Assembly (NCBI GenBank): GCA_027493545.1 | Contig: JAOSKR010000002.1 | Coordinates: 1-64,000 of the forward strand | Reading direction: 5' to 3' | DNA length: 64,000 nt | Source: Roseovarius sp. | GTDB lineage: Bacteria; Pseudomonadota; Alphaproteobacteria; Rhodobacterales; Rhodobacteraceae | Part shown: positions 59,581-62,959 of the stretch, piece by piece | Numbering within the stretch: the stretch's first letter is position 1 | Layout of the letters: every line of letters begins with the position of its first letter | Notes under the pieces: model-generated | What the model was told of the DNA's origin: nothing | The model's database searches: none | What the model saw: only the letters and a program-made list of their open reading frames with translations | Position numbers and translations under genes: made by a program

Positions 59581-61178
59581 ATGGATCACAAGAGGGGCGA
59601 CCCCACGCGGCCGCTGGGCGCGCAGATCAGCCACATGCTGAAATCGCGCGGGGTCGAGGTGATCTTCGGCATTCCCGGCGTACACAACCAGGAAATGTAT
59701 CGCGGCATCGAGGAGGCCGGGATCACCCACGTGCTGGCGCGCCACGAACAGGGGGCGGGGTTCATGGCCGACGGCTATGCCCGCGCCACCGGCCGCCCCG
59801 GCGTGGCCTATGTCATCACCGGGCCGGGGCTGTGCAATACCATGACGCCCCTGGGACAGGCGTGGTCGGACAGTGTGCCGGTGCTGGCGATCTCGTCCTG
59901 TCTCGATGAGACCGCGGCGCGGCGCGGGCAGCTGCACCAGATGCGCGACCAGCAGGCCGCCGGCGCCACCGTCTGCGACTGGAGCCTTGAGGCACGCGAT
60001 GCCGCCAGCGCCTATGCGCTGATCGACCGCGCGCTGGCCGAGTTCGCCACGCTTCGCCCGCGCCCGCGCCACATCCAGTGCCGATCGGCGCGCTCGAGGC
60101 GCGCGCGCCGGCTCCGCCCGCGATCCCGCCCGCACCTTGCACCGAGACCCGGCCGGTCGCGGCGGCAAAGGCGCTGGCCGCGGAGCTGAAAAAAGCGCAA
60201 CGTCCGCTCTTTGTCTTTGGCGGCGGCGCGGTTTTCGGCGCGGCCGAGTGGGCCAGGGTCGCCGAGCGCGCGGGGGCGGCGAGTTTCACCACCTATGCCG
60301 GGCGCGGCATCAATGGTGGCGGGGCGCTCGATTTCGGAGCCTGGCTCGCCCGGCCCGACAGCGCGGCGGTAATCGCCGGCGCCGATCTGGTGGTCGCGGT
60401 GGGCACCGAGCTGTCGCAGGTCGATCTGTGGCGCGATCATCTCGGCCATACCGGGCGGTTCGTCCGCGTCGATATCGACCCCGCCGAACTCGCCGGCGTG
60501 GCGGGCACGGACCTGGCCATTCGGGCGAACGCGGCGGCGCTGGCGCGCGAGGTGCTGGCGCTCGATGAATTCCGCCAAGCTACCGGCTGGGCAACCGATG
60601 AGGTCGCCGCCGCCCGCGCCCGCTGGCGCGCCGAGGTCGATGCCGAGCGCCCCGGCATCGCGGCCCATTGCGCCGCGCTGCATGCCGCGCTGCCGTCCGA
60701 GACGATGATCTATTCCGACATGACCCAGTTCGCCTATGCGGCCAAGGAGGTCTGGCCCATGGACCGGCCCGGCCACTGGCACCACCCGTTCGGGTTCGGC
60801 ACGCTGGGCTATGCGCTGCCCGCCGCCATCGGTGGCGCGGTGGCGCGGCGGGGAAGCCCACGCTCTGTATCGTGGGCGACTACGGCTTTCAGTACACCTT
60901 GCAGGAGCTTGGCACCGCGGTCGAGCTGGGGCTGGCGCTGCCGATCCTGATCTGGGACAACGGCAAGCTCAAGGAAATCGAGGACAGCATGGTGCGCGCC
61001 CAGATCGCGCCGCGCGCGGTGGCCGCGCACAACCCCGATTTCTGCGCCCCCGGCGCGTGCCTATGGCGCCCTTGCCGAGGCACCCGGCAACCCCGAGGAC
61101 GTTGCCGCGGCGGTGCTGCGCGCGTTTCAGGCCGACCGGCCGACACTGATCCACGTCAGCGCGCCGCGACCGGGCTGA
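59581..61178 (+). CDS. thiamine-pyrophosphate enzyme, acetolactate-synthase-like (three frameshifts)
   Basis: About 530 residues. N-terminal PYR domain with catalytic Glu: VIFGIPGVHNQEMYRG, ARHEQGAGFMADGYAR. Central domain: RPLFVFGGGAVFGAAEWAR. C-terminal PP domain with the TPP motif GDYGFQYTLQELGTAVELGL. Breaks lie near 60073, 60851 and 61055, after which it ends TLIHVSAPRPG. The family holds acetolactate synthases, 2-oxoacid decarboxylases and similar enzymes. No small regulatory subunit is adjacent, so a catabolic 2-oxoacid decarboxylase is as likely as a synthase. Confidence 0.82.
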
Positions 61179-61341: not shown

Positions 61342-62796
61342 TCAGTCCCAGCAGCTGACCAGGACGGTCATGCCGGTGGCGCGTTCGGCCAGGCTTTCGG
61401 GCGAGAGCGGCAGGCGGTCCTGCGAGGCGGCCGGGCTCACCCCGGCGTCGGCCAGAATTGCGCGCAGCGCCCCGGCATCGGCGGCGAAGCTCACCCCGTC
61501 GGGCAGTTGCCGGTCACCCTGGCGCGTGGGCAGGAGCATCCCCACCACCGCGCCATAGCCGTCCACCACCGGCCCGCCGGCATCGCCCTCGAGCGCGCTG
61601 AGCGCCAGTCGCTTGAGGTCTTCCTCGCCGGCAAGGCCGCGAACGTCGGCGAGTTCGCCATAGGTTAGTGTCGGTGCGCCCAGCACGCCGCCATAGGAAT
61701 AGCCGGCCAGCGCGATCTCGGACTTGATGCGTGGCGCGACCTCGGCAAAGGTGGCCACGGCGATGGGTGCCATCGCATCGAGCGGGCGCAGCACCGCCAC
61801 GCCCAGCCGGTCGTCGATGGCCACGACGCGGGCGTCGTAATCCTCGTCGAGCGTCACCCGCTCGCAGCCCTGCACCGCCTCCAGCGTCGTCACCACCGTG
61901 CCCTGGCCATCGACATAAAAGCCCGAACGCGAGAGCTTGGGTTGCCGGATCTCCAGCCCCGCGAGCAGATCGACACGCTCTTCGGTATCGCCGCCGGCGG
62001 CCGGGTCGAGCACGCCGTCGATGCGTGTGAAACTGGCCTGCATCTCGTCCGCCAGCCGGGTGCGGCGGTCCTCGTCGCCGGTGGGCCAGATCAGGGTAAA
62101 GCCCTTGATCTGGCCGCCGCGCAGCGTCACCTGGGTCTGTGACACGATGCGGTCGTTGCGCCCGATCAGGGTGAAGTCGTCGCCATTGACCTGGCGCGGG
62201 CCCTCGGGCGGCACGATTTCCAGCGTCTGCATGATGTCGTAGAGCCCGACCATGGTGTTGCGGTCGCCGCGCTGGCTGATCAGCAGCACCCGCGCCTCGG
62301 GCATCGGGCCGCTGGCCTTGAAATGCGCGAATGGCGGTTCGTAATGGTCGAACGCCACCACCGCCAGCGGGATTTTCATCTCGATGCCGGTGGCATCGTC
62401 ACGCACCGTGCGCAGGTCCAGCCCGTCGAGGACGGTGTTGTAGCTGTCCAGAAGCTGGGCGCGCTGGCGGGTGGTCAGGATGCCGGTGGGCTCATGCCCG
62501 TTCTCGCGCTGCCAGGCCGCCATCGCCGCGCGCGTGCCCGGCCCGAAGGCGGCGTCGACGAAGCTCTGGTAATAGCCCGCCCATTGCAGCGCCTCCTGGA
62601 TCTGGGCGCGTTCCTCGCGGCTCAGCCGGGCCTCGTTCTGGGTCGCCTCGAAAGGCGTTTCGAGTGGGATTTCGGGATCCGGCACGATTTGCGGGGCCGG
62701 ATCGCCCTGGGCCTGGGCCTGGGCGGGGGCTTGGACGACAATGAAATGGAGGGCAAGAACGATCGTGAAAAGAAGGGCATTCGCAATGCGCGTCAT
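61342..62796 (-). CDS. exported trypsin-fold protein with peptidoglycan-binding domain, catalytic residues lost
   Basis: 484 residues from ATG 62796. A signal peptide (to about AQAQ, residue 30) is followed by a PG_binding_1-like repeat (IQEALQWAGYYQSFVDAAFGPGTRAAMAAWQ, 66-96) and a trypsin-like domain (about 285-450). The histidine of the usual TxxHV block is replaced (TTLEAVQGC, Glu 306), and the nucleophile motif reads GDAGGP (Ala 406) instead of GDSGGP. The Asp region (AIDDRLGVAVLRP) remains. It should be inactive as a serine protease and may act as a wall-bound binding or scaffold protein. The gene is intact. Confidence 0.8.
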   Translation of the reverse strand: MTRIANALLFTIVLALHFIVVQAPAQAQAQGDPAPQIVPDPEIPLETPFEATQNEARLSREERAQIQEALQWAGYYQSFVDAAFGPGTRAAMAAWQRENGHEPTGILTTRQRAQLLDSYNTVLDGLDLRTVRDDATGIEMKIPLAVVAFDHYEPPFAHFKASGPMPEARVLLISQRGDRNTMVGLYDIMQTLEIVPPEGPRQVNGDDFTLIGRNDRIVSQTQVTLRGGQIKGFTLIWPTGDEDRRTRLADEMQASFTRIDGVLDPAAGGDTEERVDLLAGLEIRQPKLSRSGFYVDGQGTVVTTLEAVQGCERVTLDEDYDARVVAIDDRLGVAVLRPLDAMAPIAVATFAEVAPRIKSEIALAGYSYGGVLGAPTLTYGELADVRGLAGEEDLKRLALSALEGDAGGPVVDGYGAVVGMLLPTRQGDRQLPDGVSFAADAGALRAILADAGVSPAASQDRLPLSPESLAERATGMTVLVSCWD

Positions 62797-62959
62797 AGAG
62801 CTACCTTTGCATTTGGGCCTTGGTGCCGGTCCTGGAGTCATTCTTAACAAATTGCGCCCGGCTTGCATCCAAAATATGCGCGTGCCCGCGATTGACCCGG
62901 CCCGGCCTGCGCCGTAGGTAGTTGCCACGGTCCGCGAGGGCCCCGGGATAGGGACGAAA

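What the first reader, a model, noticed from the sequence alone, without database searches (positions are those of the whole stretch)
61342..62796. Wall-binding trypsin-fold protein that has lost His and Ser of the catalytic triad
The His position reads Glu (TTLEAVQGC) and the nucleophile reads Ala (GDAGGP), while the fold signatures and the Asp region persist. The gene is intact, so selection keeps a non-catalytic form, perhaps a decoy or a regulator of periplasmic proteolysis.
Basis: seen in the sequence. Interest (0 to 1): 0.55.

Follow-up and report, generated by a model that had tools for sequence, protein, structure and literature searches.

The report
Conserved wall-anchored dead protease
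This marine bacterium and most of its family carry an exported, cell-wall-anchored protein whose protein-cutting module lost all of its cutting residues once, early in the family, and has been kept ever since as a non-enzyme, so it probably holds or regulates something at the cell wall.

Summary
The gene is real and intact: 61342-62796 (-), 484 aa, with signal peptide, PG_binding_1, an unnamed middle domain and Trypsin_2. The His (E306) and Ser (A406) losses are confirmed.

This is not a local error. 105 of 108 distinct orthologues sit divergent from glyQ, as here; the other three lie on stretches too short to show glyQ. None has the His, 3 retain the Asp and 1 the Ser; the usual triad is E/D-G-A. 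A tree built without the triad columns puts every inactive sequence on one side of one branch (SH-aLRT 99) and intact H-D-S relatives on the other. dN/dS is 0.06-0.34. The former active site has its own conserved residues (R396, D405), and a Cys pair shared with active relatives is kept.

The usual orthologue also has an N-terminal SPOR domain, which the window clade lost. Conversely, six sampled genomes kept SPOR, PG-binding and middle domains but lost the trypsin domain. The core is therefore PG-binding plus middle domain.

Best reading: a lineage-wide, wall-anchored pseudoprotease working by binding. Partner and phenotype are unknown. I found no description of it in the papers searched.

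The parts
61342..62796 (-). Whole gene, 484 aa, exported wall-binding pseudoprotease, divergent from glyQ
   Evidence: orthologues divergent from glyQ in 105 of 108 distinct sequences
62710..62796 (-). Probable signal peptide (MTRIANALLFTIVLALHFIVVQAPAQAQA), residues 1 to about 29
   Evidence: Read from the translation: basic start, hydrophobic core, AxA-type end; no signal-peptide program was available
62452..62619 (-). PG_binding_1 domain, residues 60-115
   Evidence: PF01471, 2.3e-12
62011..62445 (-). Middle domain, residues about 118-262, unnamed; found in 107 of 108 family members and also in relatives that lost the trypsin domain; not detected in the catalytic paralogues
   Evidence: Profile searches; no Pfam match, no PDB match
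61537..61926 (-). Degenerate trypsin domain (Trypsin_2), residues 291-420
   Evidence: PF13365, 3.9e-15; own-genome search
61879..61881 (-). Glu306 at the catalytic His position
   Evidence: Aligned with His in 38 of 38 catalytic relatives; E 63, D 18, Q 11, never H, in 108 orthologues
61801..61803 (-). Gly332 at the catalytic Asp position
   Evidence: Asp in 94% of catalytic relatives; Gly in 96 of 108 orthologues
61579..61581 (-). Ala406 at the nucleophile Ser position (GDAGGP)
   Evidence: Ser in 97% of catalytic relatives; Ala in 72 of 108 orthologues, Ser in 1
61864..61866 (-). Cys311, one of an invariant Cys pair (probable disulfide, inferred)
   Evidence: Present in all 108 orthologues and 94% of catalytic relatives
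61351..61353 (-). Cys482 in the C-terminal TVLVSCWD motif, the other half of the pair
   Evidence: 107 of 108 orthologues (the other is unaligned there) and all catalytic relatives that align there
62797..62959 (.). 163-bp gap between the divergent starts of this gene and glyQ; too short to hold the SPOR domain that most orthologues have

Best explanation
An exported, peptidoglycan-anchored pseudoprotease, fixed across the family Rhodobacteraceae (as the genome collection groups it). Shown by sequence: the HtrA/MarP-like trypsin domain lost all three catalytic residues once, on the stem of a glyQ-linked gene lineage, and has since been kept under purifying selection with its own conserved residues in the old active site and an invariant Cys pair. 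Inferred: it cannot cut peptides and works by binding. The PG-binding domain, and the SPOR domain where present, hold it on the sacculus (SPOR would favour denuded glycan at the division site). The middle domain plus pseudo-trypsin domain then dock or hold a protein or peptide partner, as a scaffold or regulator of envelope enzymes. The trypsin module is accessory, because some lineages dropped it and kept the rest.
For: Triad loss: E306/G332/A406 here, and no catalytic His in any of 108 distinct orthologues, 3 with Asp, 1 with Ser. One branch, SH-aLRT 99, separates inactive from H-D-S sequences with the triad columns removed. Conserved neighbourhood divergent from glyQ. dN/dS 0.06-0.34 in close pairs, similar for the trypsin part. 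Pseudo-specific conserved residues at and round the old active site: R396 92% (Q in 91% of active relatives), D405 97% (N in 97%), G332 93%, S367 83% (P in 100%). Cys311/Cys482 kept. PG_binding_1 in 49/49 and SPOR in 35/49 members scanned with Pfam at E up to 1. Trypsin-less relatives keep SPOR, PG-binding and middle domains. A neighbouring gene is broken while this one is intact.
Against: No experiment, expression data, partner or phenotype. Two AlphaFold jobs with the only two sequences I could submit gave useless models (mean pLDDT 32 and 38), so the fold rests on sequence homology. Lineages that lost the whole trypsin domain show that it is not always needed. Some deep orthologues are strongly degenerate with long branches, which fits relaxed constraint there. 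dN/dS of 0.32 in the window clade is only moderately low.
Confidence: 0.72

Rival explanations
1. MamO-like regulator: the pseudoprotease activates or restrains an active periplasmic serine protease (DegP/HtrA type) at the cell wall.
For: MamO, an alphaproteobacterial trypsin-like pseudoprotease, activates proteolysis by its partner MamE (PMC4794232). The window genome has two intact Do/HtrA-type proteases and one secreted trypsin.
Against: No genetic linkage to a protease: the constant neighbour is glyQ. Close catalytic paralogues occur in only about 2 of 60 genomes of the genus, while the pseudoprotease is in 59 of 60. No PDZ domain was found in the family.
Confidence: 0.25
2. The pseudo-trypsin domain is a passive leftover; the PG-binding and middle domains do the work, and the trypsin domain is tolerated and slowly lost.
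For: Five genomes of one genus and one other genome (G350) keep SPOR, PG-binding and middle domains next to glyQ with no trace of the trypsin domain. Several deep members are very divergent in this domain.
Against: Retained in the great majority of sampled lineages; dN/dS of the trypsin part is as low as or lower than the whole in most pairs; new residues are conserved at 90% or more in the old active site.
Confidence: 0.2
3. It is still a protease, using a moved or unusual catalytic set.
For: Oxyanion-loop glycines (GDxGGP) are kept; pseudoenzymes with migrated catalytic residues are known (review PMC10211241, abstract seen).
Against: No His is invariant in the family, and Cys311 is shared with active relatives, so it looks structural.
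Confidence: 0.04
4. Decaying gene or sequencing error in this genome.
For: The adjacent TPP-enzyme gene has three frame changes.
Against: Same residues in Roseovarius amoyensis (81% identity) and across the family; the frame is open; dN/dS is below 1.
Confidence: 0.01

Closest known systems
HtrA/Do-like and MarP-like trypsin-fold proteases (Pfam Trypsin_2, PF13365)
   Same: Full-length domain match (3.9e-15), oxyanion-loop glycines, sequence matches to Deg1, HTRA1 and a membrane-associated serine protease
   Different: All three catalytic residues lost; no PDZ domain; carries PG-binding, middle and usually SPOR domains
Active alphaproteobacterial H-D-S proteases with the same Cys pair and C-terminal C(W/Y/F) motif, including paralogues in Rhodobacteraceae
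   Same: Nearest relatives of the trypsin domain; same Cys pair; several Rhodobacteraceae ones have an N-terminal PG-binding-like stretch, and one (G222) a SPOR domain
   Different: Intact NHV / DLALL / GNSGGP; not next to glyQ in the eight Rhodobacteraceae loci examined; middle domain not detectable by sequence
MamO pseudoprotease of magnetotactic bacteria
   Same: Bacterial trypsin-fold protein with a degenerate active site and a non-catalytic role (PMC4794232)
   Different: MamO belongs to magnetosome formation and binds metal through a di-histidine; no invariant His here; different domain set and lineage
SPOR-domain proteins such as RlpA, FtsN, DedD and DamX
   Same: Most orthologues have a SPOR-like N-terminal domain, known elsewhere to bind denuded septal glycan (PMC6895207)
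   Different: The window copy has no SPOR domain; none of those proteins has a trypsin fold (own knowledge)

Membership tests
Active Trypsin_2 / HtrA-type serine protease | Trypsin-like fold by profile | tested here: met
   PF13365, 57.3 bits against a cut-off of 27.6
Active Trypsin_2 / HtrA-type serine protease | His-Asp-Ser catalytic triad | tested here: not met
   E306, G332, A406
Active Trypsin_2 / HtrA-type serine protease | C-terminal PDZ domain (HtrA) | tested here: not met
   No PDZ match; the protein ends about 60 residues after the trypsin match
Pseudoprotease | Homologue of a protease family lacking catalytic residues | tested here: met
Pseudoprotease | Loss conserved in orthologues under purifying selection | tested here: met
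Pseudoprotease | Absence of proteolytic activity shown biochemically | not testable with these tools
   Needs purified protein
Peptidoglycan-binding protein | PG_binding_1 domain | tested here: met
   47.3 bits against a cut-off of 23
Peptidoglycan-binding protein | Binding to sacculi | not testable with these tools
   Needs a pull-down assay
SPOR-domain protein | SPOR domain present | tested here: not met
   Absent in the window copy, R. amoyensis and L024; present in 99 of 108 orthologues by a family profile, though just below Pfam's curated cut-off (21 bits) in the three SPOR-bearing orthologues listed individually
MamO | Magnetosome gene context and di-histidine metal site | tested here: not met
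   Neighbour is glyQ; no invariant His in the family alignment

The most novel reading that the evidence does not exclude
The old protease cleft has become a dedicated binding pocket: a conserved acid at the His site, Gly at the Asp site, and R396 and D405 beside the old nucleophile form a new site that recognises a peptide or wall fragment at the sacculus, making this a family-wide wall-bound receptor or adaptor built from a dead protease.
Probability: 0.25. Interest if true: 0.65.

Novelty: new variant of a known kind. Interest (0 to 1): 0.5.

Why it matters
Bacterial trypsin-fold pseudoproteases with an established role are few (MamO is the clear example found). This one is not a specialist curiosity: it was found in most of the Rhodobacteraceae genomes sampled, always inactive by sequence, with wall-binding domains. 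It gives a clean case of one early loss of catalysis followed by long retention, with related lineages that lost either the wall-targeting SPOR domain or the dead domain itself, so the role of each module can be tested by comparison. Annotation pipelines that match Trypsin_2 are likely to name it a serine protease or peptidase, which would be misleading.

Tried and rejected
Local sequencing error or pseudogene: rejected by orthologues. 'Asp region persists': rejected, the Asp itself is Gly. An alternative Cys nucleophile: rejected, Cys311 is equally conserved in active relatives. Phage origin: the viral collection gave no relative; only one near-full-length match in a plasmid record, the 1.58-Mb record of Pseudorhodobacter turbinis. 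Literature searches for a SPOR/trypsin pseudoprotease in Rhodobacter relatives found nothing; only openly licensed papers are held, so this is weak evidence of novelty. Identity of the middle domain: no Pfam or PDB match.

Full report
Observation. The gene at 61342-62796 on the minus strand encodes 484 aa. It starts with a signal-peptide-like stretch, then PG_binding_1 (residues 60-115), an unnamed middle domain (about 118-262) and Trypsin_2 (291-420). The full triad is lost.

Is it local? No. The protein matches in 60 of 60 genomes of the same genus (a full or near-full orthologue in 59), and by my count of the table 254 of 298 genomes of the family (one per genus, nearly) have a match better than 1e-30. 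Among 108 distinct orthologues, position 306 is E in 63, D in 18, Q in 11 and never His. That 'never' is partly a matter of definition, since the set was split on this position. The independent check is gene position: 105 of the 108 lie divergent from glyQ and the other three are on stretches where glyQ was not found within about 1.5 kb, while none of the eight H-D-S loci examined in Rhodobacteraceae lies next to glyQ. Position 332 is Gly in 96 and Asp in 3; position 406 is Ala in 72 and Ser in 1.

One loss. With the three triad columns removed, a maximum-likelihood tree of 77 trypsin domains puts all 41 inactive sequences on one side of a single branch and all 36 H-D-S sequences on the other, SH-aLRT 99. 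Many inner branches are weak and some deep members have long branches, so the order inside the family is not resolved.

Kept by selection. dN/dS (Nei-Gojobori) in close pairs is 0.06-0.34, with the trypsin part similar to the whole. The neighbouring TPP-enzyme gene shows three frame changes and is mostly deleted in Roseovarius amoyensis, while this gene is open in both. The old active site is not random: R396 (92%, Gln in 91% of active relatives), D405 (97%, Asn in 97%), G332 (93%) and S367 (83%, Pro in all active relatives) are conserved only in the inactive family. The Cys pair 311/482 is shared by active and inactive members, so it is most likely a structural disulfide and not a new nucleophile.

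Domain gain and loss. Most orthologues are about 580-600 aa with an N-terminal SPOR-like domain (99 of 108 by a family profile). The window gene, R. amoyensis and one further member (L024) lack it; the 163-bp gap to glyQ leaves no room. In the opposite direction, five genomes of one genus and G350 keep SPOR, PG-binding and middle domains next to glyQ and have no trace of the trypsin domain. The common core is thus PG-binding plus middle domain. The catalytic paralogues share the trypsin domain, a PG-binding-like stretch and, in G222, SPOR, but the middle domain is not detectable in them.

Mechanism. Shown by sequence: export signal, wall-binding domain, trypsin fold by homology, complete triad loss, conservation. 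Inferred: it is catalytically dead, sits on the sacculus, and works by binding a partner. SPOR domains bind denuded septal glycan (PMC6895207), so SPOR-bearing orthologues probably act at division sites; the SPOR-less window copy would rely on PG_binding_1. The nearest functional precedent is MamO, a trypsin-fold pseudoprotease that activates a partner protease and binds metal (PMC4794232). It is a precedent for 'works like', not for membership: the magnetosome context and di-histidine site are absent. In most genomes of the genus there is no close active paralogue; the window genome has two Do/HtrA proteases and one secreted trypsin with intact triads, which are the plausible protease partners if there is one.

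Limits. The structure models were unusable. No experimental data exist here. The literature check covers only openly licensed papers.

Noticed in passing
59581-61160 (+): The adjacent TPP-dependent (acetolactate-synthase-like) enzyme gene has three frame changes (near 60081, 60850 and 61048) against intact relatives; in Roseovarius amoyensis (L064) only about 170 bp of it remain. It looks like a gene being lost in this clade, though indel errors in this assembly cannot be excluded.
   Followed up: partly
L155, L157, L158, L159, L160 (one genus) and L161: glyQ-linked orthologues that keep SPOR, PG-binding and middle domains (two SPOR copies in the genus) but have wholly lost the trypsin domain.
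   Followed up: yes
L154:3570-5810 (+): A 747-aa frame in G222 combines a SPOR domain, a PG-binding domain and an intact H-D-S trypsin domain, not next to glyQ: a possible picture of the ancestral active architecture.
   Followed up: partly
62011-62445 (-): Middle domain (GIEMKIPLAVVAFDHYEPPFAHF...KGFTLIWPTGDEDRRTRL) has no Pfam or PDB match and was detected only in the glyQ-linked family; it is the family's most consistently kept unnamed part.
   Followed up: partly
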